Of a DNA stretch of 49,354 nt, positions 1-22,038 are shown piece after piece. Positions within the stretch are counted from its first letter, which is position 1; every line of letters begins with the position of its first letter. Position numbers and translations under genes: made by a program. This DNA is from a virus: positions 1 through 49,354 of the IMG/VR virus record IMGVR_UViG_3300021093_004399; one strand, 5' to 3'. Below the pieces are notes generated by a model. That model saw only the letters and a list, made by a program, of their open reading frames with translations, was not told the DNA's origin and made no database searches.

Positions 1-1130
1 TTTTTGCCTTCCGCCATGTCTTGTTTGTTTTTGATATGACTGTATACCCGGCGTAGTTGTTCTGCGTCAAGATCGTCAAGATGCTTGTGCCCAGTGAGTT
101 TTTCTGTCATACGCAAGAAACTGGGTTCATTGTCCCAGGCTATGCCACGACGGTTAGCAAGATCGTGTATCATCTTCTTGGTTATTTTGCCTTCCGTCAC
201 ACCCGGCTTCAATCGTGTCAGTTCATACACCACTTGATCGCCATGGTCTTCACTGTAGTCATCATAGCCCCATGCGGCCGCATATCTTTGAACCAACCTG
301 TCATATAATTTTGCTCTACTCTCACTGTTTTGTCCCGGATCAACATCTTTTTTGGCTGAAAAAATCAAACGCCATGGTTCGTGTTCTTTGACGAATTTTT
401 GTATGGCATTTAAAACCGTGGCAAATATTCTTTGTGCATCACCTTCACCAGTAATTTCTTGACTGTTGTTTCTATAAAACTCAACTTGCCATTCGTTGTT
501 CCCTTCGTGATTGAACATGATGCTTAGGTACTTACCATCCGGCAATCGTACTAATGTGTCGTAATCGCCAAACTCACTTTTCTGCTCGATTTCATGTGGG
601 TAGGGCTGATTAAACGCTTCGTCTAGATCATCCTGGTATTCAGGATTACGAGCAAGTTTAACCGCTCTCTTATTACCTAACACCCCAGGATTGAACCATA
701 CTGTACTTTCAACATCCCAAGCTCGCATTATGGTGTCTTGCCAATTATTCTCTGCAGTATAATGTACAGCATCATAGTCCTGGCCAATTGCTGCCCAAGG
801 CATTTTGGTCAGCAACTCTATAGGATTCTTAAATTGTGCCCCGTATTGTTGTGCAACAGCAACAGCATCACGGTCTGACCTGATAGTTAGTATCTTTGCC
901 GCGGGAGCGACATCAAACAAAAATCCTGTATCTCCAATCCATTCGGGCATTTCTGCATCACACCAACGCACCCATTCGCTGGTTATTCCTTCAGGAGTTT
1001 TGATAGCGGTGCTGGTCCATACTTTGACTTGTGGCTTTAATCCTAAGGACTCATTGACAGTGTTAGGATGCGGTGCATATAGCTGTGTGCCTAATCCTGC
1101 TGCCTCGGTTATAAACTCGTAAGCTCTCAT
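1..1130 (-). CDS. Putative capsid-targeted internal protein (partial, C-terminus off the left edge)
   Basis: The frame is open from the ATG at 1130 to the left edge, giving at least 376 residues with no stop. The start is fixed by an ATGA overlap with the stop of paaA. The N-terminus is [12 protein letters not shown], close to the T4 internal-protein capsid-targeting sequence (MKTYQEFIAE in IPIII), with a matching FITE/A site for the gp21 prohead protease. The rest is soluble and charged and I do not recognise a domain. Similar starts occur in the proteins at 10169-15252. Packaging in the capsid is inference; that this is a real gene is clear from the long open frame. Confidence 0.75.
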
Positions 1131-2205: not shown

Positions 2206-2223
2206 CTCAAATGTGCTCCTTGT

Positions 2224-2568: not shown

Positions 2569-2570
2569 TG

Positions 2571-3169: not shown

Positions 3170-3178
3170 ACGTGCTTA

Positions 3179-3652
3179 TCACCACATGTCACGAATTTGT
3201 TTTTTCTTGCGCTCGGCCACTACCCAGTTTCCACGCAGAGCAAAATACAAACCGCCAACCCAGAGAGAGAAATGTAAATAATCCGTCAGCATAAAAGTTA
3301 TCAAACTCTCGGGTTTCAACACAACCCAAATTACACCAGTGGCCACACAACACATCACAATGCCGCTGAATCTGGTCAGTGCATCACCGAACTCTGCAGC
3401 ATAGGGCCAGTCACGGATTTTGTACAATGTGGCTGCACCACCCACTAGCAGTCCCACTCCTGCCAGTACTTCACCATAAGCAACAAACCACCACACCAAG
3501 GGACCAAGTCCAAATGCTGCTCCGCCTGCGGGATCAAAGGGCAGTTTGCTCAAGCCCTGTGTGATAAAGATCAAGGCCAGAGGAATCCTTAACAACAGAT
3601 TGCTCCAAGCAAAGTCAGGAAGCATGTGCCAATAATTTTTTACCGATATCAT
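3179..3652 (-). CDS. DoxX-family membrane protein
   Basis: A 157-residue protein with four predicted membrane helices. The N-terminal helix carries LRIPLALIFITQGLSKL, typical of DoxX/DoxD proteins, and a second block reads GEVLAGVGLLVGG. Relatives include the small subunit of archaeal thiosulfate:quinone oxidoreductase and bacterial DoxX proteins linked to redox stress. GGAG lies six bases upstream of the ATG. It sits with cytochrome c and coq7, so a quinone-linked role is plausible but inferred. Confidence 0.75.
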   Translation of the reverse strand: MISVKNYWHMLPDFAWSNLLLRIPLALIFITQGLSKLPFDPAGGAAFGLGPLVWWFVAYGEVLAGVGLLVGGAATLYKIRDWPYAAEFGDALTRFSGIVMCCVATGVIWVVLKPESLITFMLTDYLHFSLWVGGLYFALRGNWVVAERKKKQIRDMW

Positions 3653-3663
3653 ATATTACTCCA

Positions 3664-3834
3664 TTAGTTTTGTGTAAAAGCTGAATTTGTTACTAGTGTG
3701 CAACGAACTGATTTTACTCTTGGATCCTTCAATGCCTCAACTTTAACTGCTTCACACTGTTCCTGTAGCGCATAGGCAGCTACCCTGTGATCATTGCCTG
3801 GATTGAACAGCCACGCAATGTACATTATCCACAT
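3664..3834 (-). CDS. Small hydrophobic-start C-x(17)-C family protein (56 aa)
   Basis: The ATG at 3834 directly follows the cytochrome c stop (TAAATG). The peptide begins MWIMYIAWLFNPG, then has LQEQCEAVK, a D-P-R-V step and a second Cys followed by Thr, the same spacing as in the genes at 2224 and 8731 (P-x-V-x(4)-C-T in all three). Internal Met4 is an alternative start. The motif match across distant loci is the main evidence. Function unknown. Confidence 0.6.
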   Translation of the reverse strand: MWIMYIAWLFNPGNDHRVAAYALQEQCEAVKVEALKDPRVKSVRCTLVTNSAFTQN

Positions 3835-4134
3835 TTATTTCACAGTCATTATGTATTGTGCCAGCAGTTTTGCATCTGCCTCTGACACATGGGGTTGCTT
3901 GGGCATGGCCATGGCGCCCCAGACTCCACCGCCACCATTTCGAATTTTTCCAGCGAGATACTCTACTGCATCTTTTCTATCTTTGTATTTGGCTGCTACT
4001 TCTTTCAAAGATGGACCTACTACCCTGTTCTGTGCCTGATGACAACCAATACAACCAGACTTTCTAAACAATGCGTCATCTGCCTGAACAGGCATTGATA
4101 ATATAAATAATACTGTAAACATTACATTTTTCAT
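3835..4134 (-). CDS. Class I c-type cytochrome (c5/c551-like), secreted
   Basis: A 99-residue protein with a Sec signal peptide (cleavage probably after VQA, residue 18). The haem-binding CIGCH sits at 28-32 and the distal Met ligand is in GAMAMPKQ near 75-77. Length and layout match small monohaem electron carriers of the periplasm. It is flanked by DoxX and coq7, so it could shuttle electrons to a terminal oxidase. Covalent haem attachment would rely on the host Ccm system. Phage-borne cytochromes c are unusual. Confidence 0.85.
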   Translation of the reverse strand: MKNVMFTVLFILSMPVQADDALFRKSGCIGCHQAQNRVVGPSLKEVAAKYKDRKDAVEYLAGKIRNGGGGVWGAMAMPKQPHVSEADAKLLAQYIMTVK

Positions 4135-4163
4135 GAACTTCCTTTCACATTAAAAATTTAAAC

Positions 4164-4346
4164 ATGCGTTTTTTATATCTAATTTTATCACTGTTACCTG
4201 CTCCATTATTTTTACTACTTGGTATCTTCAACCTCTTTCATTCACCCTCTCATTGTGGTTCATTTCAATATGAAATGACTACGATGTGGTTTGTCATGTT
4301 TTTTGCACATCTTTTACCTTGGTTAAAAAAAATCAAAACTTCATAG
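4164..4346 (+). CDS. Possible small two-helix membrane protein on the plus strand (60 aa)
   Basis: A plus-strand frame of 60 codons in the roughly 200-bp gap between cytochrome c and coq7. It encodes a hydrophobic helix (about 4-25, including LLPAPLFLLLGIF) and a second one near 41-54 with a basic end (LKKIKTS). The composition is that of a real membrane protein, and the minus strand holds nothing better here. Against it: no clear Shine-Dalgarno, the opposite strand to all neighbours, and a 14-bp overlap with coq7. Confidence 0.4.
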   Translation: MRFLYLILSLLPAPLFLLLGIFNLFHSPSHCGSFQYEMTTMWFVMFFAHLLPWLKKIKTS

Positions 4347-4866
4347 CAATTTTTACAGCCGCTTTTGATCCAGCGTGAACCAATTTACACCATAATTTTA
4401 ATGCACGACCTGGTACAACTATAACATCGCCCAAAGCATCTTGTCTATGACGGATTTCATCAAAACGCAGTTTTTTCAAAATATCAATCAACTGCTGCTG
4501 ATTGTTAACTGTGATACCAGCGAGGTCCGCATCATACACGGATAAAAATTCTATCTGCTCCAAATAATGCTGATCAACAAAAGTTTCTACTGTGGCAATG
4601 GTGTGTTTAATCCAGTTAGGTCCCATGACAGCAGGAATGAATCCAGTTATGAAACCAGCAACTGCCCACAGTGGCACAAGCAGGCTGTGCTTGGATCTAG
4701 GCAAAATGGCATTGACCTCAGCCAGATGCTGTGATTCTTGAGCTAAATGTTCTTGCATAAGATCGGCCGTTGCTGAATCATGGCGGAACAATTGCATGGC
4801 TCGATAGATCCAGACTGCACCTGTCTCTCCAGCCTGATCAGATCTAAGTGCTTGTACTAGATCCAT
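4333..4866 (-). CDS. coq7: COQ7-type demethoxyubiquinone hydroxylase
   Basis: Diiron enzyme that hydroxylates 2-polyprenyl-3-methyl-6-methoxy-benzoquinone, a late step of ubiquinone synthesis at the membrane. Visible ligands: E14 in QAGETGAV, the E-x-x-H at 44-47 (ESQH), VETFVDQHYLEQI, and the C-terminal FDEIRH. The 177-aa length fits the short form common in alphaproteobacteria and mitochondria. The start overlaps the end of nth by 23 bp. With lactate-type dehydrogenase and cytochrome c nearby it suggests maintenance of the quinone pool. Confidence 0.88.
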   Translation of the reverse strand: MDLVQALRSDQAGETGAVWIYRAMQLFRHDSATADLMQEHLAQESQHLAEVNAILPRSKHSLLVPLWAVAGFITGFIPAVMGPNWIKHTIATVETFVDQHYLEQIEFLSVYDADLAGITVNNQQQLIDILKKLRFDEIRHRQDALGDVIVVPGRALKLWCKLVHAGSKAAVKIAMKF

Positions 4867-5515
4867 TGCTTATTTTTTCTTTGTGATAGTCACAGAGGTC
4901 TGTAAACATGCATTCATTGCATCTAGGACCCCGTGCTCGACAAACATACTTACCATACTCTATAAGCCATTCATGTGCGCCCCAACGATATTGATCTGGA
5001 GTTCGTTGCTCAAGAACTTCTGCTGTTTTGTGTTCTGCCTTGGTCTTGGCAATGCCTAGCCTATTAACAATGCGATGCACATGGGTATCCACTGCAATCG
5101 CAGGTTCATTGAATACAAAACGCATCATAATGTCTGTGCTTTTGCGTCCTACCCCTGCCAACTGCATCAACTGTTTTCTATCGTTGGGCACAATGCCGGC
5201 GTGACGCTCTAACAATTGTTGGCTCATTAATTTGAGATTCTTGGCCTTGTTGTTGTACATGCCTGCAGGCCGAATCAATAGTTTTAGTTCATCTATGTCT
5301 AGAGCCAAAATCTCCTCAGCAGTTCTAGCTCGGGCAAACAGATTACGGCAGGCTTCTGCGGTTCTTTCGTCTTTGGTCTGAGCAGACAATGTCACACCAA
5401 CCAGGCTCTTGAATGCGTTATTGTATATCTTTTCTTTGGGCGGTCTATTAGGTTTAGGATTACGAGCATGAAACCTTTCATAAACAGTGATCAGTTTTGT
5501 TTTAACCATTGTCAA
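4844..5515 (-). CDS. nth: Endonuclease III (DNA glycosylase/AP lyase)
   Basis: Base-excision repair enzyme that removes oxidised pyrimidines and cleaves the AP site. Seen: a helix-hairpin-helix with the catalytic lysine (LAGVGRKS, K125), the catalytic aspartate in AVDTHVHR (D143), and a complete C-x6-C-x2-C-x5-C 4Fe-4S cluster (C192, C199, C202, C208). The 223-aa length is slightly longer than E. coli Nth (211). It is translationally coupled to the upstream hydroxyacid dehydrogenase through an ATGA overlap. Confidence 0.93.
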   Translation of the reverse strand: MTMVKTKLITVYERFHARNPKPNRPPKEKIYNNAFKSLVGVTLSAQTKDERTAEACRNLFARARTAEEILALDIDELKLLIRPAGMYNNKAKNLKLMSQQLLERHAGIVPNDRKQLMQLAGVGRKSTDIMMRFVFNEPAIAVDTHVHRIVNRLGIAKTKAEHKTAEVLEQRTPDQYRWGAHEWLIEYGKYVCRARGPRCNECMFTDLCDYHKEKISNGSSTST

Positions 5516-6675
5516 ACCACCACACTAGACGGTGTGGTGTATCCAATCAAGATATCGTTGCCCACATCGTTAATGTCTCTGTGTCCGGTCAATGCCATAG
5601 TAGTATCTAGTTCACTATGGATAATTTCCAAACATTTTGTAACTCCTTGTTCGCCCATAGCACCAAGGCCATGTAAAAATGCTCGGCCTATCATAGTGCC
5701 ACGAGCACCTAATGCCCATGCTTTCAAAACATCTTGCCCGGATCTAATACCACTGTCCAACCATACTTCACAATCTTTGCCCACCGCCGCTACAACACTT
5801 GGCAATGCCATGATAGTGGACACAGCACCATCCAACTGTCTGCCACCGTGATTGGACACTACTATAGCATCTGCTCCTGTATCTCTAGCCAATTTTGCAT
5901 CATCTCTGTGTAGTATGCCTTTCAGCACCAGTGGCCCGCCCCAGCGTTTTTTGATCCATTCTATGTCATGCCAGGTCATGGTGGTATCAAATTGTTCTGC
6001 GGTCCACGCAGCCAAGGATCCCATGTCTGTGACTGATTCTGTATGACCAATAATATTACCAAAGTTACGGCGTTTGGTACGCAGCATGTTCCAACACCAT
6101 TTGGGTTTGGTCATCATGTTAAAAACATTTTTGGCAGTGAGTTTGGGTGGAGCACTCAGTCCATTATGGATGTCTTTGTGACGCTGCCCCATGACTTGTA
6201 GGTCCAGTGTAAGCACAAGAGCACTGCATCCTGCCACTTTGGCTCTATCAATCAGTCTTCCAATAAAGGTTCGATCCTTCATCACATACAGTTGAAACCA
6301 AAAAGGTTTAGTGGTATGTGCAGCAACATCTTCTATAGAACAAATACTCATGGTAGACAGGCAGAAAGGCACTCCAAATTTTTCTGCTGCTCTGGCAGCT
6401 AATATTTCACCGTCAGCGTGTTGCATGCCTGCAAACCCTGTGGGTGAAAGTGCCACAGGCATTGTGACCTTGCGGCCCAGCATGGCAGTGATCAATTTTC
6501 TATCACTGACATTTTTGGCCACACGCTGATGCAGTTTTATCTTGTCAAAATCCGTTGTGTTGGCTCTATAGGTAGACTCTGTCCAAGACCCACTGTCGCA
6601 GTAGTCATAGAACATGCGAGGTGTGCGTGATTCATGCAAACGCCGTAGATCTTCAATGCAGGTTACCACTGTCAT
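5512..6675 (-). CDS. lldD: FMN-dependent alpha-hydroxyacid dehydrogenase (LldD-like)
   Basis: A TIM-barrel flavoenzyme of the L-lactate dehydrogenase/glycolate oxidase family, 387 aa, matching the usual 380-400. The active-site block SNHGGRQLDGA contains the catalytic His and the substrate-binding Arg; PVALSPTGFAGM and LDSGIRSGQDVLKA are FMN and phosphate-binding parts. Family members oxidise L-lactate (or similar 2-hydroxyacids), and LldD passes electrons to ubiquinone at the inner membrane. Substrate cannot be fixed from sequence. It lies in the same coupled run as nth and coq7. Confidence 0.88.
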   Translation of the reverse strand: MTVVTCIEDLRRLHESRTPRMFYDYCDSGSWTESTYRANTTDFDKIKLHQRVAKNVSDRKLITAMLGRKVTMPVALSPTGFAGMQHADGEILAARAAEKFGVPFCLSTMSICSIEDVAAHTTKPFWFQLYVMKDRTFIGRLIDRAKVAGCSALVLTLDLQVMGQRHKDIHNGLSAPPKLTAKNVFNMMTKPKWCWNMLRTKRRNFGNIIGHTESVTDMGSLAAWTAEQFDTTMTWHDIEWIKKRWGGPLVLKGILHRDDAKLARDTGADAIVVSNHGGRQLDGAVSTIMALPSVVAAVGKDCEVWLDSGIRSGQDVLKAWALGARGTMIGRAFLHGLGAMGEQGVTKCLEIIHSELDTTMALTGHRDINDVGNDILIGYTTPSSVVV

Positions 6676-6676
6676 G

Positions 6677-7042
6677 CTATTTTATTCCTTTTGGCCAGGG
6701 CCATTTTTCGTCGTCGCTGAGTTCTTGATCACGTGGACTGCGATCAGGTTGTCTAAACTGTTCGTCAGTGGGACGATCAGGATATTCTTTTTGCACTGTA
6801 CGCACCACTAACCATGTGACAAAAGCCATGCTGACAATAGCCAAATGACCAAACACATTATAGCCAAGGTACATTATTTCGCCAGTGTATAAACTAAATG
6901 CCAACGCCCAAAAACAGGCCAGCCACACACTGATAATATATTTCATCTGTGCAGGTGCGTTTTTTAGTCCGTTTTTATTAGGATCTAGAAGATGATAAAA
7001 ATTCCTAGCCAGGAAGAATAAAAATTTGAATAAGCTGTACAT
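6677..7042 (-). CDS. Membrane protein of unknown function
   Basis: Start chosen at the ATG 7042 (MYSLFKFLF) behind GAAAGG; an upstream TTG is less likely. The 121 residues contain two or three hydrophobic helices (about 3-14, 38-54 and 62-80) and a hydrophilic C-terminal tail rich in D, E, P and R. No family recognised. The gene directly precedes the LldD-like dehydrogenase with one base between them, so the two are probably co-expressed. Confidence 0.6.
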   Translation of the reverse strand: MYSLFKFLFFLARNFYHLLDPNKNGLKNAPAQMKYIISVWLACFWALAFSLYTGEIMYLGYNVFGHLAIVSMAFVTWLVVRTVQKEYPDRPTDEQFRQPDRSPRDQELSDDEKWPWPKGIK

Positions 7043-7110
7043 AGGGCCTTTCAAAAAAAAATTTTAAAATGATTTTTACAACACCAATAAATTGTACGAT
7101 AATAATTGAA

Positions 7111-7884
7111 TTAGGTCAAGCAATCTGGCTGTTCTTTGATTATTCTATCATATAATGGTTGGAAACTAAACCATCCTTGCCATTCTGATCCCATGATAGA
7201 ATATGATTGTTCGGCAACCTCTGAAGAAATTCGTTGTTTCATTCGATTGTGTGACGCCGATTCAATCATAAGTTGAACTTGACAGCTTCTTTCCATAGTT
7301 ATGAACCACCAAGCAGCAGCATCTACTGTGCTACCAACAGTAAGTAAACCATGATTTTGCAGTATCGCTGCTTTGTTATTGCCCAATGCTTTGGCTATCC
7401 TTTGTCCCTCTTCCAGTTCAACTGCAACTCCACCAAAATCATGATACACAGAATGGTCATTGAAAAAAGCACAAGCATCCTGTGTGACTATATCTAAACG
7501 TCGACCAAACACGCTCCAAGCGCGACCATAAATGCTGTGTGTATGTGCTGCTGCCATCACATCAGGTCTGGCATGGTGAACTGCATTGTGAATAGAAAAT
7601 CCTGCCAGATTAATCTGTCCATTGCCATTGATAACTGAACCAGTTTCGTCAACCTGTATGAGATTACTCACACACACTTGACTGAAGTGACAGCCAAAAG
7701 GATTCATCCAAAATGTATTTGGAAATTCAGGATCTCGAGCAGTTATATGACCAGCCACGCCTTCATCAAATCCAAACTTACTAAAAAGTCTAAATGCTGC
7801 GGCCAAACGCTGTTTTATATGCGATCGATGTTGATCAACATCAGAAAATACTGGTGGATTAGGCAAGTTCATAAGATTGCTCAT
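7111..7884 (-). CDS. Class II aldolase/adducin-domain protein
   Basis: A 257-residue protein with the class II aldolase fold signatures: GVAGHITARDP near the start, the zinc-ligand pair in AAAHTHSIYGR, and the C-terminal LQNHGLLTVG with the third metal His. Bacterial relatives cleave sugar phosphates or decarboxylate small acids; many have unknown substrates. It lies between the membrane gene at 6677 and a zinc-ribbon gene, inside the metabolic island. Substrate undetermined. Confidence 0.85.
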   Translation of the reverse strand: MSNLMNLPNPPVFSDVDQHRSHIKQRLAAAFRLFSKFGFDEGVAGHITARDPEFPNTFWMNPFGCHFSQVCVSNLIQVDETGSVINGNGQINLAGFSIHNAVHHARPDVMAAAHTHSIYGRAWSVFGRRLDIVTQDACAFFNDHSVYHDFGGVAVELEEGQRIAKALGNNKAAILQNHGLLTVGSTVDAAAWWFITMERSCQVQLMIESASHNRMKQRISSEVAEQSYSIMGSEWQGWFSFQPLYDRIIKEQPDCLT

Positions 7885-7920
7885 GGATTTAAACCTTTAC
7901 AATTTTTTTTTACATAAAAC

Positions 7921-8136
7921 TTAACTTTGACCAAATATTCGTCTTATTACATAATTTGTATGACGATTGTCTTGGTCAAGATAACAGATTTCACACAATG
8001 CTAATTTCGGCCCATTATGCCCATCAAGAAATTTATGACAGGCAGCACAGTGAATAAACTTTTCGACAATTTGCCAGGCTTCTGTGTGCTGTGGTACTAG
8101 TTGCCAATCTTTATTCTCATGCAGCCAATAGCTCAT
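7921..8136 (-). CDS. Small CxxC/CxxC zinc-ribbon protein
   Basis: Start set at the ATG 8136, which overlaps the stop of the upstream gene as ATGA; an in-frame ATG at 8148 is less likely. The 71-residue product has HCAACHKF, then G-P and LCEICYLD, a four-cysteine zinc-binding arrangement. The same layout (C-x2-C, GGP, C-x2-C-Y) occurs in the 22285-22473 product, so these are probable paralogues. Function unknown. Confidence 0.6.
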   Translation of the reverse strand: MSYWLHENKDWQLVPQHTEAWQIVEKFIHCAACHKFLDGHNGPKLALCEICYLDQDNRHTNYVIRRIFGQS

Positions 8137-8399
8137 GCACCGCCCCATTCATTTTTAGCCACCTCACTTGCTTTAGGTGTGTCTAATCTAGAATTTGAAT
8201 TTGGTCTAATTTTTTTAAGATTTTTTTGAAATTGTTTTTTACGCCTGCGTTTTTCTAATGTGTCTATTACAAATCCGGGTAACACATGCAACACTATGTA
8301 CACTCCAAACAGTATGCCCAGCACTGGTCCCCAAAATGCCATGAACGCCCATTTCAGTTTATCTATCAAAAAATATGTCTCCAACAAAAGGTATGACAA
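8133..8399 (-). CDS. Single-pass membrane protein with basic cytoplasmic tail
   Basis: Contains one strong membrane helix (AFWGPVLGILFGVYIVLHVL) followed by a basic stretch (KRRRKK) and a polar tail. The start is uncertain: the frame opens with TTG at 8399, a TTG at 8369 has GGAG nine bases upstream, and the first ATG is at 8342. I favour 8369 (78 aa). It is coupled by ATGA to the zinc-ribbon gene. No family recognised. Confidence 0.5.
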   Translation of the reverse strand: MSYLLLETYFLIDKLKWAFMAFWGPVLGILFGVYIVLHVLPGFVIDTLEKRRRKKQFQKNLKKIRPNSNSRLDTPKASEVAKNEWGGA

Positions 8400-8445
8400 T
8401 CATTAGGCCAATGACAGTGCCAAAAAAACCAAGTATTTCAATCAT
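8359..8445 (-). CDS. Hydrophobic miniprotein (28 aa)
   Basis: A short frame with ATG at 8445, encoding an almost wholly hydrophobic segment (MIEILGFFGTVIGLMIVI...) ending FFDR. Its stop overlaps the likely TTG start of the downstream membrane gene, a spacing typical of coupled phage genes. There is no strong Shine-Dalgarno, so this is tentative. Confidence 0.3.
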   Translation of the reverse strand: MIEILGFFGTVIGLMIVIPFVGDIFFDR

Positions 8446-8454
8446 AAGTTAATC

Positions 8455-8715
8455 TCAATATGTTTCAGCATTCGGATTATACCCACGCATGTTCCATTGA
8501 TACAGCTTTTGTTCGTGCCAATAAGTCTTAAAAGCTTCTTTTGTTTTAAACTTTTTCTGAAACTCCTCTGTCACAGATAAACAACTCCACAAGTCTTGAC
8601 CACCCATTTCACCTTTCATGAACAAAGTGTCACAGTCCCAATAGTATTTTTCAAGTTGTTTATATGGCAACTTAGCAGCATTCAAAGCAAGAGCAAGAGT
8701 TATTGATAGTAACAT
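8455..8715 (-). CDS. Small exported protein of unknown function
   Basis: An 86-residue product with an N-terminal signal-like segment (MLLSITLALALNAA) and a polar, aromatic-rich mature part containing two cysteines (WDCDTLF and WSCLSV) that could form a disulphide in the periplasm. It lies between a family member at 8731 and the miniprotein at 8359. No family recognised. Confidence 0.5.
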   Translation of the reverse strand: MLLSITLALALNAAKLPYKQLEKYYWDCDTLFMKGEMGGQDLWSCLSVTEEFQKKFKTKEAFKTYWHEQKLYQWNMRGYNPNAETY

Positions 8716-8730
8716 ATAACTTATTTTCTG

Positions 8731-8916
8731 TCAAGTTTTATTTTGATATCCGTCTTTCCAAGTGCATAGAATATCCGAAACATTAGGATTTTTCATTTGT
8801 ATTCGAGATTCTGCCAAGCATTCTGACGTGGTAGGATATCCTGCAATGGTCACAGGTTTCAACCCTACCAAACCAGAATTAGTGGTGATCAACATATACA
8901 CGATCAACACATACAT
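8731..8916 (-). CDS. Small hydrophobic-start C-x(17)-C family protein (61 aa)
   Basis: Start placed at the ATG 8916 because the frame upstream overlaps the formate dehydrogenase gene, and because MYVLIVYMLIT aligns with the start of the 2224-2415 protein; AAGAGATAAGG lies just before it. It then reads AGYPTTSECLAES, N-P-x-V and a second Cys followed by TW. It is clearly a paralogue of the 2224 gene. Function unknown. Confidence 0.65.
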   Translation of the reverse strand: MYVLIVYMLITTNSGLVGLKPVTIAGYPTTSECLAESRIQMKNPNVSDILCTWKDGYQNKT

Positions 8917-8920
8917 GACC

Positions 8921-10120
8921 TTATCTCTTGAACTTGGCCGCTTCTTCTGACCCGCCTGTGGCATTGCCCTTGCTGTAGCTATGAGCACCCACACCTGCCA
9001 GTTGACCATTCTGCACCACCAGATATTCATTGCGTATTGGGCGACCTTCAAAATGGCATTCTAACACTTCACGCACACCTGCGGCATAGCGTGTTTGTGC
9101 TGACAAACTGGTGCCAGAAATATGCGGTGTCATGCCATGCCAGGGCATTGAACGCCAGGGATGATCCTGTGGTGCGGGCTGCGGGAACCATACATCGCCA
9201 GCATAACCTGCTAGATGTCCACTTTCCAATGCACGGGCCACAGCATCACGATCGCATACCTTGCCACGTGCAGTGTTCACAATATAGCTGCCACGCTTCA
9301 TCTTGGCAATCATGGCATCATTAAACAAGTGTTCTGTTTCTGGATGAAGTGGGCAGTTGATGGTCACAACATCCACCACACGAACCATGCTTTCTACGCT
9401 GTCATGCCAGGTAAGGTTTAGTTCTTGTTCAACATGTGCAGGCAAACGATGACGATCAAAATAGTGTAGATGCACATCAAATGGTTTGAGTAATCTCAAT
9501 GCTCGTAATCCAATACGACCTGCTGCCACTGTGCCCACATGCATACCTTCGATATCATAACTGCGACTTACACAGTCAGCAATGTTCCAGCCACCATCTA
9601 CAACCTGTTTGTAACTGGGAATGTAATTGCGTACCAGACTCAACATCTGCATCACAATGTGTTCTGCCACACTATTACTATTACAGTATGTGATTTCTGC
9701 TACAGTAATGCCACGATCCATGGCTGCTTGTAAGTCCACATGATCTGAACCAATGCCTGCTGTGAGTGCCAGTTTAAGTTTTGGTGCTCGGGCAATTCTT
9801 TCTGCTGTAAGATAAGCTGGCCAGAACGGCTGACTGATAATCACTTCAGCATCATGTAGATTGTTCTCCAATCTACTGTTGGGTCCATCTTTGTCTGAAG
9901 TCACAACAAATTCATGACCTAAATTTTCTAAAAATTTTCTTAGACCTAAACCACCTGTAACACTGCCCAGTAGTTCACCTGGAGAGAAATCCACAGCATG
10001 TGGACTTGGAACGGTCTGTCCATCTGGGTAGTGCGTGATTGTGGGAATGCTGTCTCTTGCGTAACTTGTTGGATGACCATTTACCGGATCATCATATAAA
10101 ACACATAGAACTTTAGCCAT
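8921..10120 (-). CDS. fdh: NAD-dependent formate dehydrogenase
   Basis: Soluble metal-free enzyme oxidising formate to CO2 with NAD reduction. The 399 residues match the Pseudomonas sp. 101/methylotroph enzyme almost throughout, from MAKVLCVLYDDPV to the C-terminal HSYSKGNATGGSEEAAKF. Key residues are present: N147 (TYCNSN), the NAD fold GTVAAGRIG (196-204), D222 for NAD selectivity, R285 (NTARGK) and H333 (TPHISGT). AAGGAGG lies upstream of the ATG. It stands alone behind a 48-bp AT-rich gap. As a phage gene it would supply NADH from formate. Confidence 0.95.
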   Translation of the reverse strand: MAKVLCVLYDDPVNGHPTSYARDSIPTITHYPDGQTVPSPHAVDFSPGELLGSVTGGLGLRKFLENLGHEFVVTSDKDGPNSRLENNLHDAEVIISQPFWPAYLTAERIARAPKLKLALTAGIGSDHVDLQAAMDRGITVAEITYCNSNSVAEHIVMQMLSLVRNYIPSYKQVVDGGWNIADCVSRSYDIEGMHVGTVAAGRIGLRALRLLKPFDVHLHYFDRHRLPAHVEQELNLTWHDSVESMVRVVDVVTINCPLHPETEHLFNDAMIAKMKRGSYIVNTARGKVCDRDAVARALESGHLAGYAGDVWFPQPAPQDHPWRSMPWHGMTPHISGTSLSAQTRYAAGVREVLECHFEGRPIRNEYLVVQNGQLAGVGAHSYSKGNATGGSEEAAKFKR

Positions 10121-10168: not shown

Positions 10169-10849
10169 CTACAAATTTCTTTCCCAGATCACAAAAGGAT
10201 CATTGACCACAATAGTGCCGTCGGGTCTGGCCATGTAATTGCCACTATGTAGATCCACTGAAAAATTGTGTTTGCGAGCAAATCTTGAAACTTCGTATAC
10301 TGTCTTTAGTAGGCCATCTGCTCGTTCGGGCCCACCCAATAGGTCAATGACTTCTTGTACATCTTCAAAATACTTGGGATTGTAACCTGGTGAGTAATAA
10401 TCTTCGGCACTGGCAAACTCAGCATAACTTTTTATTTTGTTATACGCTGCTTGTAAATTGCCTCGGCCTATCTGTTTGGTCACTTGATCAATCTGTGCTA
10501 CTAAATCTCTAACAGTGTTGGGTAATTCTTCTAGTGTTTCCATTCTGGCCTGAATATATCTTTTACCTTGAAATTCAAAACTTTCAAATCCTGAGAATCT
10601 GGGCAAGTGCGGATTGTTGCGATGCTTGTTGCAATAGTTAATCCAATCGACAAACATTCGTTGATCGGGACTGAAATCTTGTACACCTTTACGATAACCA
10701 AACACAATATACACTTGACCGTTGGGTTCTAAATATGCATGTTTGTCTATACCACCGCCTAAATAAGTATAACCTTTATCTGCTAATACATTTGAGATGC
10801 CTCTATGTATTGATCCGGCCATTTCTGTGGTGAAGTCCGCTGCTCTCAT
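10169..10849 (-). CDS. Kinase-like internal protein with capsid-targeting-like N-terminus
   Basis: Start set at the ATG 10849 (MRAADFTTEMAG), which overlaps the stop of the amidoligase-like gene as ATGA. The 226-aa protein has a GGGIDKHAYLE-like N-lobe strand and, near the end, DLHSGNYM (about 199) and NDPF (about 216), the catalytic-loop and DFG-like motifs of protein-kinase/aminoglycoside-phosphotransferase folds. The MRA..F..TE start resembles a T4 capsid-targeting sequence. A packaged kinase delivered with the DNA is an attractive but inferred role. Confidence 0.65.
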   Translation of the reverse strand: MRAADFTTEMAGSIHRGISNVLADKGYTYLGGGIDKHAYLEPNGQVYIVFGYRKGVQDFSPDQRMFVDWINYCNKHRNNPHLPRFSGFESFEFQGKRYIQARMETLEELPNTVRDLVAQIDQVTKQIGRGNLQAAYNKIKSYAEFASAEDYYSPGYNPKYFEDVQEVIDLLGGPERADGLLKTVYEVSRFARKHNFSVDLHSGNYMARPDGTIVVNDPFVIWERNL

Positions 10850-13368
10850 CTTGCCGGCACCACCATAAATTCTCCACTGCCTAATAGGCCGTTCTGTCTC
10901 AACCAATTGGCTGCATACTGATTGGCTTCGCCTTGATTGCTACGACCAACGAAACTGTAAACTTCACGGTCGTTACGATCTAATACCAACCAGCGTGTAT
11001 TACCTGGTGGTAGGCTTTCTGTGCCTTGTACCTGTTGTCTTGCCTGCATTCTTGGTCTGACATAGATAGGATCATCAAATCCAGTTTGCTGTTGCCATCT
11101 GGCTGCATGTCTTTCAGCATCTGCTACCGCATTACCAATACCACTAACCACACCGACAACCTCGCCGGTGTTTCTACTGACGAATTCCCAAACTCCGGTA
11201 AACTCTTGATCACGGCTGGGTGTGGATCCTATATCCACAGTCTCTGGTGGATCTGGCAGTCTTGACCTTGCTACAGGTTCGGCTTCAATTCTATAAACCG
11301 TATATCCGGCCCGTTGTAAATTAGTTCTCATTACATCCACGGCAGCATCTGCATTACGGGCTGGAACAGTAACAGCGTCATTTCTAACTTCGCCGTCGTA
11401 GGTCGCTGTGTAAGACACTCTAAAATTCTGTACTTGCGTCTGACCAGGTGGTTCTCTCCCTACAGGTTCAGGTTCGCCTAGTCTTGCTCTCACCGTAGAG
11501 GGCATTGTTTCTCTGCCGGTGTAGTCAGGATCAAGAGCCACGTTGATATCTTCGCTGGCCGCGTTGGCAAATATGTCAGGGTGTCTTCGCATGGCCACTT
11601 GTTTGGCTTGAAACTCACTCATGGCTTTTACATATACATATACACCTTGCGAATTTCCTTCAACATACACACGATAAAACTTATCACTTAACTCGTTCAT
11701 ATCTGCCGTAGTAGCAGCTCGTAAGGGCTGTGCCCGCCAACCATGTTCTTGTGCCCATTCTTCTATGCTATAACTACCAATGCTCAATTGCCATTTTTTA
11801 ATGGCTTCTACAAATGCATCCAACTGAGTCTTGCCTATCACTTCCGTGCCTTGACTTTGATATGGACTCGAAGCACTGCCGGTAACTTTCCAGACCAATA
11901 ATATATCTTTGGCACCTTTGGTAAGTTTTTCAACACCACGCTTGCCCTGTATCTGTCTAACAAATGCTTTTAATGCGCTTTGTGGCAATTCGCCTGCTGC
12001 ATATTTTGCAAAGTATTGAATAGTATCGTTGTCTTGGCCTTGTGATAGTGTTTTGTATAACTTTTTGTAGTATTCTTGTTTGAATTCCTCGGGCTTGGTG
12101 GCCACATCTAAGGCCACTACTGCACGCAACATAGTGTTCTTTACATCGTCAAGATTGTCTCGTCCCAACCAGTCGCCGCCGGGACTACGGAATTCAACCC
12201 AATCACCTCTGTTGTTGATACTCGAATATTTTTGTGTTTCGCCGGTGTGCAAGATCTTGCTGGCAATATCACTTAGTCCATTTTGAAACTGACGCATCAT
12301 TTCAGACACACGCTCAGGCTCATTACGGCCTTTTTGTATGATATTTTTCAATATGCTTTTGCAGTAGGTGTTGCCTTCACGGCCAAATTGTTCTAGAATG
12401 TAGTTGTCTCCTAAGAACATGGCCAATTTAACAAAGTCTAATTTGTCTTGGTTAGGCACACTCACATTCATATGCAGTCCGGTACTGCTGTTGGTATATG
12501 CACCTGTGCGTTCGGCCCATTGAGCCACAGAATCAATGTCATCTAACATTTCTGATATAGTTAATGGAGGGCTAACAAATTCTAATCCGCCATCACCGGG
12601 TTCGTCGCCGTGTAGGCTTGAATCAGGTTCCACTACATAATGTCCTGGTCGTCTAGTGGCACCGTGATAACTAGAGCTGGCATTCACAGGACGACCAATG
12701 GCATTGCTAAAATCGCCGGCAACATCGTCGATACTGACACTGCCCCTTCTACCACCGTAATCTGGTTCAGTCCAGTATGGCCATTCTAAATTATATTCAT
12801 TGCCAAAGTCAGACATTGAATTGATACCTTGCCGATCTAACCATTCTTCAAACTTTGAGTCAAGGTCTTCGTTGTATTCGTCAATTATTTGATCGCGTAT
12901 GCTATCTTGGTTTTCATCAAGATAATCTTCCAAAGCTTTTCTTAGTTCCTCAGGAGAATCGTAATCATCTTGATTGATATTATCAAGAGCTATTTCTCGT
13001 GCTCTTGCTACTCCGTCGGCCGAGTTTATAAAATTACCTTGATCTTCGTCGACCCAGGTGTAAAAATCATCATTCAAGTTATCAATGGCTCTTTGTATTT
13101 CTCTTGTGCTGCTGCCCATTTCGCCGCCACGGAAGAAATCCATGATATCTCTTGTCCAACCTTGCCCGGTAGGAAACCTTTCGTCGGCATCGTAGTCAGG
13201 TTCTGATTCAAATTCATCTTCGTCATCTGTATCTGCGTTGGGTACAATCAATTCAAATTCCATGCCCACTCTGGCATCAATATTCTTGGACATCTTGGCC
13301 AGATTGCCTGGGCTCATATTGAGCTCAAACAATTCATCTTCGGTCAGTTCAAATTCTCTGGCTCTCAT
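10846..13368 (-). CDS. Large amidoligase-like internal protein (840 aa)
   Basis: Begins MRAREFELTEDEL. A putative amidoligase (Amidoligase_2, COOH-NH2 ligase of the glutamine-synthetase fold) covers roughly 30-400: GMEFELIV at 35, DGGLEFVSPPL at 260-269 and STGLHMNVSVP at 295-305 are the metal and substrate signatures of that family. The second half is hydrophilic with repeated strand-like segments and a Q/R-rich C-terminus of unknown role. The start overlaps the peptidase stop (ATGA). It could ligate amines or peptides to carboxyl groups in the host; packaging in the capsid is inferred from the N-terminus. Confidence 0.7.
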   Translation of the reverse strand: MRAREFELTEDELFELNMSPGNLAKMSKNIDARVGMEFELIVPNADTDDEDEFESEPDYDADERFPTGQGWTRDIMDFFRGGEMGSSTREIQRAIDNLNDDFYTWVDEDQGNFINSADGVARAREIALDNINQDDYDSPEELRKALEDYLDENQDSIRDQIIDEYNEDLDSKFEEWLDRQGINSMSDFGNEYNLEWPYWTEPDYGGRRGSVSIDDVAGDFSNAIGRPVNASSSYHGATRRPGHYVVEPDSSLHGDEPGDGGLEFVSPPLTISEMLDDIDSVAQWAERTGAYTNSSTGLHMNVSVPNQDKLDFVKLAMFLGDNYILEQFGREGNTYCKSILKNIIQKGRNEPERVSEMMRQFQNGLSDIASKILHTGETQKYSSINNRGDWVEFRSPGGDWLGRDNLDDVKNTMLRAVVALDVATKPEEFKQEYYKKLYKTLSQGQDNDTIQYFAKYAAGELPQSALKAFVRQIQGKRGVEKLTKGAKDILLVWKVTGSASSPYQSQGTEVIGKTQLDAFVEAIKKWQLSIGSYSIEEWAQEHGWRAQPLRAATTADMNELSDKFYRVYVEGNSQGVYVYVKAMSEFQAKQVAMRRHPDIFANAASEDINVALDPDYTGRETMPSTVRARLGEPEPVGREPPGQTQVQNFRVSYTATYDGEVRNDAVTVPARNADAAVDVMRTNLQRAGYTVYRIEAEPVARSRLPDPPETVDIGSTPSRDQEFTGVWEFVSRNTGEVVGVVSGIGNAVADAERHAARWQQQTGFDDPIYVRPRMQARQQVQGTESLPPGNTRWLVLDRNDREVYSFVGRSNQGEANQYAANWLRQNGLLGSGEFMVVPAR

Positions 13369-14609
13369 TCAATGATCTCCGGATTGTCTTTGCCATACAA
13401 TTTCATAAGGTAGCCGGCCACTGCATCTGCTTCCTGTTCAATGGGAGATCCTGGATATGCTTGATCACCGTGTACTCTATTGTCTTCGTGTTGTTTTCTA
13501 TGCACCAATTCATGTGCCACAGTACGCATGATATCAATCAAATTCCTATTACCAGTGTATACCCACATGATGTCATCATTGTCGTCGTAGTATCCGGTTC
13601 TGTGTTGATCTGGACCTTCTTTGGCATCTTGGAATCTAATTCGTGGTAATTCTTGTTCAATGTTCAATTTACGCACACACCATTGGATAAAATCACGCAG
13701 TTGATCTTCGTGTTCTTGATAGGTGCTTTCATTTAATGACAATAAATTATAATCCTGTTCAATTTTAGTCAAGCAAAATATTGCATCATCCACAGTGGCA
13801 CCTACTCTATACATAAAATCTGGACCTGTATCAAAATAGGGACGACCATCTTCAATGCTGCCTTGTTTGACTAGAACATCGCTATTAGTAATTGGAACGA
13901 ACATAATCGCATCTAGTGTATTTTCATCTCTTTTTCTGGTGCATCCAAAACCGCCTTTTAGATTTGGAAGTGGTTTAGTCTTGAATCCTAACTTTGCTAG
14001 TTCAGTGGTTATGATTTTCCGAAACTTAAAAAAATCACCTGATGGTGTTGATTCTGACCCATCGTCATCACCAGCCGGGCCTACAAATTCTTTTAAAGAT
14101 TTATCGCCATCACCAGTTACTGATTTTTTTTGTATCAAGTGACTGCGGTGTAGATCATTGTTGGCTCCTAATTTTTGAGCAATGTGTTGCCAGGCTCCGC
14201 CGCTGGCATCATCTTGTACAGTCAATGTTCTTACCGTGGGTTGATCTCTAAATTGATCTTCGAGCCTTTTATAAATTTCATCGAGCATCTTGGTTACGAT
14301 GCCAGAAAATTTGCCTGCATGAGCATCCAATACATTGATTACTAGTTCGGGTAAATCATATCCAACACTGACTTGTAAGTAGAAGTGACCCTTGGGATCT
14401 GCTAGGCCATCATAATATTCTTGATTCTTGACATACTGACGCTTGGTGCTGGCAAACACAGGATTGTATCCATAACTGTCGCCGGTGTACAATCTTGCCT
14501 TTGGATAGGCCGAGGACCATACATTCTCAATTATCCGTTTAACTATACCTGTGCTGTATTCTCCAGCAGTTTGTTCGGTATTTTCAGTTATAAAATCTCT
14601 AGCTCGCAT
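13365..14609 (-). CDS. HExxH metallopeptidase-like internal protein
   Basis: Start chosen at ATG 14609 (MRARDFITENTEQ) rather than the upstream in-frame codon because it restores the MRA..FITE motif shared by neighbours. The 414-residue protein carries a C-terminal zinc-peptidase signature, VAHELVHRKQ at about 364-373, followed by GSPIEQEADAVAGYL, whose Glu may be the third metal ligand. The N-terminal two thirds are unrecognised. It overlaps the HAD gene by 11 bp. Possible processing or injected protease. Confidence 0.65.
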   Translation of the reverse strand: MRARDFITENTEQTAGEYSTGIVKRIIENVWSSAYPKARLYTGDSYGYNPVFASTKRQYVKNQEYYDGLADPKGHFYLQVSVGYDLPELVINVLDAHAGKFSGIVTKMLDEIYKRLEDQFRDQPTVRTLTVQDDASGGAWQHIAQKLGANNDLHRSHLIQKKSVTGDGDKSLKEFVGPAGDDDGSESTPSGDFFKFRKIITTELAKLGFKTKPLPNLKGGFGCTRKRDENTLDAIMFVPITNSDVLVKQGSIEDGRPYFDTGPDFMYRVGATVDDAIFCLTKIEQDYNLLSLNESTYQEHEDQLRDFIQWCVRKLNIEQELPRIRFQDAKEGPDQHRTGYYDDNDDIMWVYTGNRNLIDIMRTVAHELVHRKQHEDNRVHGDQAYPGSPIEQEADAVAGYLMKLYGKDNPEIIE

Positions 14610-15252
14610 CTTTGTTGTCCTGTGGTCCGGCAATCATTCGACCACGGTCCCGGCTCTGTATGTTTTGTGGCGTATGCTCACGCCGACCTTTGACAATTTC
14701 AAAAGCTCTACGCAATCCCTTCGCAACCACGTCTAAGCTATCTTCATCGGCTTGATACTTGATACCAATTCCGCCCGACTGTTCCCATTCTGTTAGCACA
14801 CTATTACGATCATCAACCAGGATATTGGGTGTACCATCTGCTTGTTTTGCATACTTGCCCTTGCGTCCAGTGATGCGGATCACTCTAGGCTGCGGATCCA
14901 AGTTTTCTGCGATCCAGGCTCGCTTCATGGCTTCTGAGTTTTGATTGTCGCCGCGTAGTGGGCTGGAGCAGATGTTGTAGTAGCCAAACACTTGAACTAC
15001 CATAGCTACCAATCTATCTGCACTAGGGAATTTGGGCAGTCTTTGAAAGAAATCAGTGCCGCGCATCTGTGCAATTACAGGTTCTCGCAGTTCTGGGGGA
15101 ATGTTTCTGTAGTCTGCTCGCCCGCTTTTGACATCAGCGGGAACGCCAGCAAGTTTGGCATATTCTGAAAAAAAGTCTGCTAGCACGCCGTCCATGTCCA
15201 GGAATATTTCTGGCCGGCCGTGAGGTTGTTGTTCTAGTTCATAAAGTCGCAT
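14599..15252 (-). CDS. HAD-superfamily 5'(3')-deoxyribonucleotidase-like protein
   Basis: A 217-residue product with the HAD motif I LDMDGVLADFF at 18-28 (nucleophile and acid-base Asp) and a later NILVDDRNSV motif IV, as in phage and bacterial 5' nucleotidases. ICSSPLRGDN fits motif II. These enzymes dephosphorylate nucleotides and help balance phage pools. The N-terminus MRLYELEQQ resembles the MRA..F..E starts downstream, though less exactly. The basic C-terminus is unusual. Confidence 0.75.
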   Translation of the reverse strand: MRLYELEQQPHGRPEIFLDMDGVLADFFSEYAKLAGVPADVKSGRADYRNIPPELREPVIAQMRGTDFFQRLPKFPSADRLVAMVVQVFGYYNICSSPLRGDNQNSEAMKRAWIAENLDPQPRVIRITGRKGKYAKQADGTPNILVDDRNSVLTEWEQSGGIGIKYQADEDSLDVVAKGLRRAFEIVKGRREHTPQNIQSRDRGRMIAGPQDNKDAS

Positions 15253-19973: not shown

Positions 19974-21059
19974 ATGCTTTACTCAAGCGTCGGAGTCTAT
20001 TACGACTCCGACTCTGTTCGATACCATTTTTCTCAATTTAAACAATTGAAACCATTGCAGGATTGTGTAAGTTATAACAATCTCGACGAATTTCTATGTT
20101 CTCAGTGTACAATCAAAATAGCCGGTTTGCATGTTCCTTATCCTTTTCATAAAAATTTCGAGACTCAAGTTGAAAAATTAAGTGCTGAATCCGATCACGT
20201 CTTTATAATTGCAACTGAGTTGCACCCTGAAATTGCTGCATTTATTCAAACAACTGACCACAAAAATATAACCTATTATATCTGCGGATTTTTAAATTTT
20301 GAGTTGCATCATGCACAAGTTAAACAGTTTATGGATTGGTTCGAGACCAGCACATACTTTTATAAGCACTGGTTACCAGAGATTTTATCAAGACTGCACC
20401 CATACCAGTTCAAATATAGAGCCTTTGATATTTTACTAGGACGTAAAAAACTACATAGAGACGAACTGTTTAGGCATTACCAACTACGACCCAGCATTGG
20501 AATAGTTACTTACTTTAATGATCACAATACTCAATTGGGGGACAATCCAGATCAATGGATTTGGGAACATACTGGAGTAAAAATTGATCAAAAACCTGAA
20601 TGGACAGTTGATCCTGTAAACTATTACGGTCATCAAATGGGTTTAAGTCAAATTATTCCTATAAATGTTTATAATCAAACTGCATATAGTGTAGTAGCAG
20701 AAACATGCTTTCATGACAACTTTGCTTTTTTTACAGAAAAAACCAGCAAACCTATAATAGGTCGAAGATTATTTGTTATGTTTGCAGGAAGAAATTATAT
20801 GGCTAACCTACGCCGCTTAGGGTTTAAAACATTTGATAGTGTCATTGACGAAAGCTACGATCAAGAATATGATGCCTTGGTTAGATGGAGAATGGCTTGG
20901 GAACAAATGGTATGGCTTGCTGATCAACCACAAGATCAAATACTAGAACAAATACGCCCAATTGTGGAACATAATTTTCAACATTTAATGACTACAAATT
21001 GGGCAGACAATTTTAGACAGGAGTTAGAGCAAGACTTTGCTCGTGTAACTGCTGGCTAG
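19974..21059 (+). CDS. Glycosyltransferase-like phage protein (361 aa)
   Basis: Starts two bases after the H1-tail gene on the plus strand, so the two are probably co-transcribed. The C-terminal region has FFTEKTSKPIIGRRLFVMF followed by LGFKTFDSVIDESYD, a pattern seen in phage proteins and similar to the donor-binding EKT-x-KP motif of fucosyltransferase-like enzymes. The N-terminal half is unrecognised. Its end overlaps the minus-strand uvdE gene by 47 bp. The substrate may be a surface glycan; this is uncertain. Confidence 0.6.
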   Translation: MLYSSVGVYYDSDSVRYHFSQFKQLKPLQDCVSYNNLDEFLCSQCTIKIAGLHVPYPFHKNFETQVEKLSAESDHVFIIATELHPEIAAFIQTTDHKNITYYICGFLNFELHHAQVKQFMDWFETSTYFYKHWLPEILSRLHPYQFKYRAFDILLGRKKLHRDELFRHYQLRPSIGIVTYFNDHNTQLGDNPDQWIWEHTGVKIDQKPEWTVDPVNYYGHQMGLSQIIPINVYNQTAYSVVAETCFHDNFAFFTEKTSKPIIGRRLFVMFAGRNYMANLRRLGFKTFDSVIDESYDQEYDALVRWRMAWEQMVWLADQPQDQILEQIRPIVEHNFQHLMTTNWADNFRQELEQDFARVTAG

Positions 21060-22038
21060 CCAGATTTTTACCTTTGGCCTCAACCATGATATCAGCCCAA
21101 TCGCTGTGCTCTAATGCCCACTTGTTGCATGCTTGGTTCCAAGCAAAATCACTGTGCGCTCGCAGTTTTTGTTTCTTGTACCCTGCTGCTAAGAGAGCGG
21201 CAAGATCAGGGCGTACATGTGGGTCATGATCCACCAACACATCTTCCCGGCTAATACTGTAATGAACAACAGGGCGAATACCACGCCAGCTGTCGCAAAT
21301 CCTCTTGATACGATCGTCTCTATGGTCAATGTATTCTCCGGTGGCAATCCAATGATGGTGTAGGTCTAACACCAAAGCGACGTCTGCAGCCAATTCGAGG
21401 CTGGCTTCAAGCCCCCAGGACATTTCATCGTTTTCGATTGTGATGCAGTTTCTTGCTTCGGGACTGAGTCTGCTGAGCGCCGCACGGATTCCGGCTGGAC
21501 CGCGTTTACCCGAGATGTGGACATTGATCTTAAAGTCCTGGAACGAAGCGCCATAGCCCATCCATCTTGCCATATCTGCATGATATTCAAACTCCTCTAT
21601 ACTTCTCGTTACAATGTTGTCGTTTTCGCTGGCCAACACACAGAATTGTCCAGGATGGAAACTGAGCCTTACATCTAATCGGCGTGCAGTTTTGCCAATT
21701 GGCGCGAATATCTTTTCTAAATGTAGTTGTACATCTGCCTGTTGCCACCAAGCTTTCCAATCTTTTTCTGTATAACCTTGCAACATTTCACTACCTAATC
21801 GAACCATTCTACGCTCGGCAGGTAGAGTGGCCACACGTTCAATCATTTTAACCGCAGCAGCAGCATTGTGATTCATAATGTCCCATTGGCGCTGCTCGGC
21901 CTCGCCAGGATGTTCACGCAACCAACGCATGGTAGTGCTACGCCCGTTGAGATCTCGGTCCTTGGCATTTACCTTCATGCCGCCACACTCGCTGGGGTCA
22001 TTCAACCATTTGCAGGCAAAGCCAATACGTTTGATCAT
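21013..22038 (-). CDS. uvdE: UV damage endonuclease UvdE
   Basis: TIM-barrel metal-dependent endonuclease that nicks 5' of UV photoproducts. Family motifs are present: RLSFHPGQFCVLAS, NVHISGKRG, ITIENDE and VLDLHHHW, which supply metal-binding His, Glu and Asp residues. The 341-aa length fits UVDE/UvsE proteins. Photoproduct repair suits a phage of sunlit water. The 3' end converges on and overlaps the plus-strand glycosyltransferase-like gene. Confidence 0.92.
   Translation of the reverse strand: MIKRIGFACKWLNDPSECGGMKVNAKDRDLNGRSTTMRWLREHPGEAEQRQWDIMNHNAAAAVKMIERVATLPAERRMVRLGSEMLQGYTEKDWKAWWQQADVQLHLEKIFAPIGKTARRLDVRLSFHPGQFCVLASENDNIVTRSIEEFEYHADMARWMGYGASFQDFKINVHISGKRGPAGIRAALSRLSPEARNCITIENDEMSWGLEASLELAADVALVLDLHHHWIATGEYIDHRDDRIKRICDSWRGIRPVVHYSISREDVLVDHDPHVRPDLAALLAAGYKKQKLRAHSDFAWNQACNKWALEHSDWADIMVEAKGKNLASQQLHEQSLALTPV

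What the first reader, a model, noticed from the sequence alone, without database searches (positions are those of the whole stretch)
10169..14609. Kinase-like, amidoligase-like and metallopeptidase genes as a coupled trio
The three genes overlap start-to-stop by ATGA. The first has DLHSGNYM and NDPF kinase motifs, the second GMEFELIV, GLEFVSPPL and STGLHMNVSVP of the putative amidoligase family, the third HELVH. An amidoligase with a peptidase and a kinase could form a novel protein-tagging or peptide-ligation system aimed at host targets.
Basis: partly seen in the sequence, partly recalled or inferred. Interest (0 to 1): 0.65.

Follow-up and report, generated by a model that had tools for sequence, protein, structure and literature searches.

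The report
Capsid-address-tagged effector operon in jumbo phage
Three neighbouring enzyme genes of an uncultured giant phage all begin with the same nine- or ten-residue peptide, which looks like the 'pack me into the head' signal of phage T4, so they are probably loaded into the virus particle and injected with its DNA; dozens of unrelated proteins in related giant phages carry the same tag.

Summary
On the minus strand a HExxH peptidase, a protein with an Amidoligase_2 domain and a kinase-like protein follow one another with ATGA overlaps. The domain calls hold: Amidoligase_2 above its Pfam cut-off, T7-type kinase by profile and predicted fold, zincin motif invariant in relatives.

All three proteins start with one short peptide, MRAxxF..E (MRAADFTTE, MRAREFELTE, MRARDFITE). 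Relatives in IMG/VR carry it on at least 59 groups of unrelated bodies, nearly always at the true start codon, and kinase or peptidase genes keep it while swapping what follows. It resembles T4's capsid-targeting sequence (MKTYQEFIAE, cut by the gp21 protease after [L/I]xE). All seven tag-bearing contigs of 147 kb or more that were searched encode a gp21-type protease, and in one of them the scaffold is rich in [LIV]xE sites. I conclude this is a variable operon of head-packaged, injected enzymes. Packaging, cleavage and injection are inferred, not shown.

The trio is not a fixed module (relatives lack the amidoligase or the kinase, or fuse the domains differently), so a dedicated tagging system is not supported. 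New variant of a known kind: T4 internal proteins.

The parts
10169..10849 (-). Kinase-like protein, 226 aa, N-terminal tag MRAADFTTE
   Evidence: phrog_15752 (T7-type protein kinase) E 5e-8; AF2 model pLDDT 76, all eleven Foldseek hits with E<=0.001 are protein kinases, prob 1.0; D199, N204, D217 invariant
10823..10849 (-). Tag codons of the kinase-like protein (MRAADFTTE)
   Evidence: residues 1-9 have pLDDT below 50
10199..10255 (-). Kinase catalytic loop to DFG-like stretch (DLHSGNYM ... NDPF, residues 199-217)
   Evidence: invariant D, N and D in nine homologues
10846..13368 (-). 840-aa amidoligase-domain protein, tag MRAREFELTE
   Evidence: PF12224 Amidoligase_2 E 9e-10, 39.2 bits against cut-off 22; phrog_2443
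12289..12732 (-). Amidoligase_2 domain (residues 213-360)
   Evidence: GLEFVSP and STGLHMN invariant in relatives
13339..13368 (-). Tag codons of the amidoligase protein (MRAREFELTE)
   Evidence: residues 1-17 have pLDDT below 50
13365..14609 (-). Metallopeptidase-like protein, 414 aa, tag MRARDFITE
   Evidence: HExxH plus downstream Glu invariant; weak DUF3920 (E 3.5e-4) and phrog_87 metallo-protease (E 0.0027) matches
13500..13514 (-). HELVH zinc-binding motif (residues 366-370)
   Evidence: invariant H, E and H
14583..14609 (-). Tag codons of the peptidase (MRARDFITE)
10846..10849 (-). ATGA stop/start overlap, amidoligase/kinase
13365..13368 (-). ATGA stop/start overlap, peptidase/amidoligase
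14599..15252 (-). HAD-type 5'-nucleotidase, first gene of the run, with a degenerate tag-like start (MRLYELEQQ)
   Evidence: phrog_2643 E 1e-18; a NT5C homologue in L166 carries a full tag, MRIQELLEE; fused to the peptidase in G003
3..1130 (-). Further tagged ORF (MRAYEFITE), cut by the window end, function unknown
   Evidence: homologues W3 in the operons of G001, G004, G012; fused to the kinase in L013 and to the peptidase in G015

Best explanation
The trio is part of a variable cargo operon of a T4-related jumbo myovirus. Each protein begins with a 9-10 residue capsid-targeting sequence (M[R/K]Ax[D/E]F[I/L/V]xE). It would bind the scaffold core during head assembly and carry the enzyme into the prohead. 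The phage's gp21-type protease would then cut after the Glu, the mature enzyme would stay with the packaged DNA, and it would enter the next host cell with that DNA. There the kinase, amidoligase and peptidase would act early on host proteins or small molecules, as T4 Alt and the internal proteins do. Shown here: the tag, its spread over unrelated proteins, its position, the co-occurring protease and the site bias. Inferred: packaging, cleavage, injection and targets.
For: (1) Same N-terminal peptide on all three proteins and on the ORF at 3-1130. (3) 298 tagged ORFs fall into 59 body groups; information is 4.0 bits at E9 and 0.44 at position 10, a position that was not selected on. (4) In four large records, 27 of 3508 near-start ATGs carry the tag against 2 of 5426 internal ones (p 1.6e-9). 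In regions found by homology to the trio, 31 of 57 genes are tagged against 8 of 610 elsewhere (p 2.6e-30). (5) 58 pattern matches against 1 for the reversed pattern in 11 tag contigs. (6) The kinase keeps the tag at the chain start although the N-terminal domain behind it differs. (7) Synonymous codons vary, so the peptide is conserved rather than a DNA element. (8) T4 IPII and IPIII begin MKTYQEFIAE. In T4 the first 10 residues suffice for packaging, residues 4 and 7 matter for targeting and 8 and 10 for cleavage, and gp21 cuts after [L/I]xE (PMC9026906). (9) A Peptidase_S77 prohead protease is found in all seven tag records of 147 kb or more that were searched. In G008 the scaffold-like protein has 7.1 [LIV]xE per 100 residues against 1.24 in the proteome, and capsid-like N-termini have four such sites. 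In G016 a tagged gene lies in the head cluster. (10) Other tagged cargo matches injected-effector types: Kinase-PolyVal, ART-PolyVal (PMC5512222).
Against: No experiment on any of these phages. The window is a 49-kb fragment and no head or protease gene was identified in it. The kinase tag ends TTE, not [L/I]xE, and the nucleotidase tag is degenerate. Some tagged cargo (GH19 endolysin-like, LysM plus lysozyme) is not a usual internal protein. Among 15 cultured-phage records, chosen by hand and mostly from other lineages, the pattern is near background (7 matches against 1 control), and cyanophage homologues of two cargo families lack the tag. The regex and DNA pattern pre-selected most tag positions, and the sequences are related, so the p-values overstate independence.
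Confidence: 0.78

Rival explanations
1. A dedicated ligase-peptidase-kinase system: the amidoligase joins a peptide or amino acid to a target, the peptidase matures or removes it, the kinase regulates it.
For: Adjacent ATGA-coupled genes; peptidase-amidoligase-kinase co-occur in the window, G001, G007 and G003.
Against: In G008, G012 and L013 peptidase and kinase lie close together with no amidoligase in the region held; G014 has amidoligase and peptidase with no kinase homologue found; domains are fused differently in relatives and other unrelated tagged genes sit among them.
Confidence: 0.1
2. The shared peptide is an address of another kind: to the tail or baseplate, to a phage compartment in the cell, or a stability or degradation signal.
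For: No protein of this clade has been localised; some tagged cargo are cell-wall enzymes.
Against: Match to the T4 capsid-targeting sequence including the protease site, presence of a gp21-type protease in every large tag record searched, and the site bias of one such phage's own scaffold.
Confidence: 0.13
3. The shared start is a nucleotide element (ribosome site or recombination hotspot) and the peptide is a by-product.
For: ATGAGAGC is very common at these starts and sits in ATGA stop/start overlaps.
Against: Codons vary synonymously (R: AGA, CGA, CGT; A: all GCN; F: TTT, TTC; E: GAA, GAG) while the residues hold.
Confidence: 0.03

Closest known systems
T4 internal proteins IPI-IPIII and Alt with capsid-targeting sequence
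   Same: Short N-terminal peptide (IPII and IPIII: MKTYQEFIAE) on otherwise unrelated proteins, ending at a gp21-type cleavage site; variable, host-directed cargo
   Different: Tag starts MRA with one residue fewer, is far more uniform, and stands on at least 59 body groups including enzymes (amidoligase, kinase, zincin, nucleotidase, endolysin-like); often in one overlapping operon; packaging not yet shown
Polyvalent proteins (Iyer et al. 2017, PMC5512222)
   Same: Injected-effector domain types: PolyVal-type kinase, ART and ParB-like domains occur in tagged cargo; domains are shuffled and fused
   Different: Here mostly separate proteins each with its own tag, rather than one giant multidomain chain
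Phage T7 gp0.7 protein kinase
   Same: phrog_15752 match; kinase core without the usual C-terminal lobe
   Different: T7 gp0.7 is made after infection (own knowledge); this one is predicted to arrive in the virion
Amidoligase_2 proteins (PF12224), including Atu_ph07 gp196
   Same: Domain above curated cut-off; Atu_ph07 homologue at 30% identity, two genes from the portal, inside the CDS 170-215 cluster rich in virion proteins
   Different: The Atu_ph07 protein lacks the MRA tag; whether it was itself detected by mass spectrometry could not be checked

Membership tests
T4-type capsid-targeting sequence / internal protein | Short N-terminal peptide shared by proteins with unrelated mature parts | tested here: met
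   59 body groups among 298 tagged ORFs; information collapses after Glu9
T4-type capsid-targeting sequence / internal protein | Ends in the gp21 cleavage consensus [L/I]xE | tested here: met
   ITE (peptidase), LTE (amidoligase), ITE (ORF at 1130); exception: the kinase ends TTE
T4-type capsid-targeting sequence / internal protein | Gp21-type (S77) protease in the same genome | tested here: met
   PF03420 in 7 of 7 searched tag records of 147 kb or more; not seen in the 49-kb window fragment
T4-type capsid-targeting sequence / internal protein | Protein packaged, cleaved and injected | not testable with these tools
   needs virion proteomics
Amidoligase_2 (PF12224) | Profile match above curated cut-off | tested here: met
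   39.2 bits against 22
Amidoligase_2 (PF12224) | Glutamine-synthetase-like COOH-NH2 ligase fold | tested here: inconclusive
   Model pLDDT 65; first nine Foldseek hits are glutamine synthetases, but best E 0.08 and low TM-scores
T7-type / polyvalent protein kinase | Kinase fold with catalytic Asp, Asn and metal-binding Asp | tested here: met
T7-type / polyvalent protein kinase | Kinase-PolyVal (PF18762) match above curated cut-off | tested here: not met
   No match for the window protein; its 26%-identical tagged relative L166 matches at E 3.5e-4, 21.1 bits against a cut-off of 27
Zincin metallopeptidase | HExxH with a downstream third ligand | tested here: met
   H366, E367, H370 and E391 invariant in five sequences; that E391 is the third ligand is inferred
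Zincin metallopeptidase | Named Pfam peptidase family above cut-off | tested here: not met
   DUF3920 at 21.2 bits (cut-off 27.3) and Peptidase_M78 at 12.6 (cut-off 22)
Polyvalent protein (Iyer 2017) | Two or more conflict domains in one long chain | tested here: not met
   The three enzymes are separate chains in the window; fusions occur only in some relatives
Dedicated ligase-peptidase-kinase tagging system | The three genes always occur together | tested here: not met
   No amidoligase beside peptidase and kinase in G008, G012, L013; no kinase homologue found in G014

The most novel reading that the evidence does not exclude
Many uncultured T4-related jumbo phages share one exchangeable nine-residue capsid address tag that loads an arsenal of unrelated enzymes, including an amidoligase that may ligate peptides or amino acids to host molecules as soon as it is injected. 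The tag would let anyone read the injected proteins of a giant phage straight from its genome.
Probability: 0.6. Interest if true: 0.75.

Novelty: new variant of a known kind. Interest (0 to 1): 0.62.

Why it matters
Which proteins giant phages carry in their heads and inject is mostly unknown outside T4 and phiKZ-like phages. If the tag is a capsid-targeting signal, a short sequence search predicts injected effectors in hundreds of uncultured genomes, gives a start to test for anti-defence and host-takeover functions, and offers a compact packaging signal for loading proteins into very large heads. It also changes how these three enzymes should be tested: as separate injected effectors, not as one pathway.

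Tried and rejected
Reading the trio as one ligation system: rejected on patchy co-occurrence and variable fusions. Reading the shared start as a DNA element: rejected on synonymous variation. Looking for a close isolate: only Atu_ph07 matches the amidoligase at 30% identity, none matches the kinase, and a common tagged 129-aa protein has no isolate match. Checking whether Atu_ph07 gp196 is in the virion: the proteomics table is in a supplement that could not be opened, so only the cluster position is used. Solved-structure sequence searches gave nothing useful. Literature: no paper found describing this tag in jumbo phages, in open-access text only.

Full report
What is there. The window is an IMG/VR virus record of 49,354 bases. 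A HAD-type nucleotidase, 14599-15252, precedes them. The right part of the window is identical, at protein level, to a second contig of the same phage (G005).

Domains. The 840-aa protein carries Amidoligase_2 at residues 213-360, E 9e-10, above cut-off. Its AlphaFold model is weak (pLDDT 65), but the first nine Foldseek hits are all glutamine synthetases, the fold expected of this ligase superfamily, at E 0.08 or worse. The kinase-like protein matches the T7 kinase PHROG family (E 5e-8); its model (pLDDT 76) finds protein kinases, prob 1.0, best E 2.8e-4, and the catalytic D199, N204 and D217 are invariant. The third has an invariant HExxH and a later invariant Glu but no confident named family.

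The shared start. Read from their ATGs, the three proteins begin MRAADFTTE, MRAREFELTE and MRARDFITE; an ORF cut by the window's left end begins MRAYEFITE. Homologues fetched by protein search, not by motif, have the same start, and so do their unrelated neighbours in the same operon: six consecutive tagged genes in G007 and six in G001. Body regions without the first 12 residues form many unrelated groups.

Is it more than chance? In four large records the tag sits at 27 of 3508 near-start ATGs and 2 of 5426 internal ones. In regions defined by homology to the trio, 31 of 57 genes are tagged against 8 of 610 elsewhere. In 11 tag contigs the pattern matches 58 times and its reversed control once. 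These counts are not phylogenetically independent, and most tag positions were part of the search pattern. Free of that bias are the sharp loss of conservation at position 10 and the homology-found genes.

A signal, not a domain. In five relatives the kinase domain follows different N-terminal segments, and the chain still starts with the tag or a near form (L018: MRAYEFLKDD); G008 uses a GTG start, MRFFEFNNE. The peptidase domain also occurs alone behind a tag. Cyanophage homologues of DUF6267 and DUF6321 cargo lack the tag, so it is an add-on. In L119 a TAT signal follows the tag directly. Codons vary synonymously. Residues 1-9 of the kinase model and 1-17 of the amidoligase model have pLDDT below 50.

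What signal? In T4, IPII and IPIII begin MKTYQEFIAE. A review states that the first 10 residues of IPIII suffice for packaging, that residues 4 and 7 matter for targeting and 8 and 10 for processing, and that gp21 cuts after [L/I]xE (PMC9026906). The new tag aligns on the EFIxE part of that sequence with one residue fewer in front. All seven searched tag records of 147 kb or more have a Peptidase_S77 protease. Around the G008 protease the genes follow the T4 head order (by reading and position, the protease alone by profile). Its scaffold-like protein has 7.1 [LIV]xE sites per 100 residues against 1.24 for the proteome; the first 45 residues of three capsid-like proteins have four each, against a G008 mean of 0.75. 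In G016 a protein starting MKSTEFITE is encoded just before the scaffold and protease genes.

Other cargo. Tagged proteins include Kinase-PolyVal and ART-PolyVal matches (below curated cut-offs), NT5C nucleotidase, GH19 endolysin-like, LysM plus lysozyme, ParB-like and DUF6267. Several are types predicted to be injected in polyvalent proteins (PMC5512222). Atu_ph07's amidoligase, gp196 by counting from the portal (gp198) and topoisomerase (gp200), lies in the CDS 170-215 cluster rich in virion proteins by mass spectrometry; whether it was itself detected is unknown.

Conclusion. The trio is best read as three members of a variable, head-packaged and injected cargo set. T4's own internal proteins are described as diverse anti-restriction factors sharing only the targeting sequence (PMC3012670; PMC12373910), so the principle is known. 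The MRA-type tag, its breadth over enzymes, and the operon form in jumbo phages were not found in the open literature searched. Packaging, cleavage and injection remain to be shown.

Noticed in passing
1127-10120, minus strand: Run of metabolic genes: phenylacetyl-CoA epoxidase-like (PaaA), DoxX-like, cytochrome c-like, COQ7-like, endonuclease III-like, FMN-dependent lactate-dehydrogenase-like, class II aldolase-like, D-2-hydroxyacid/formate dehydrogenase. Most have no match in the related phage contigs, so either a phage-specific metabolic island or an assembly join. Names other than the dehydrogenase (Pfam) rest on reading the sequence.
   Followed up: partly
38001-40401, minus strand: Hsp20-like and DnaK-like chaperone genes side by side, conserved at 85-96% identity in G001, G003 and G007.
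   Followed up: no
21013-22038, minus strand: UvdE-like UV-damage endonuclease (by reading), 88-91% identical in related contigs.
   Followed up: no
33700-35709, minus strand: 669-aa protein with signal peptide, Thr/Val repeats and a beta-barrel-like C-terminus resembling an outer-membrane protein; matched only in G005, the same phage.
   Followed up: no
L118:5583-6349, L145:6901-7658 and many other loci: Pair of small tagged proteins (about 125-130 aa) encoded in overlap, with a conserved C-terminus such as SPVKAFKGYPR, the second commonest tagged group (85 of 298); no known family and no isolate match for one member. Possibly a main internal head protein of this clade.
   Followed up: partly
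L119:3858-4493, minus strand: GH19 endolysin-like protein with a TAT export signal directly behind the tag, which would be exposed if the tag is cut after Glu9.
   Followed up: no
L260 (Cyanophage P-TIM40) and L258 (Xanthomonas phage XacN1): Isolates with tag-like starts: MRFLDFIKE on a nucleotidyltransferase-like protein and MKLHDIITE on a 185-aa protein; possible laboratory test cases.
   Followed up: partly
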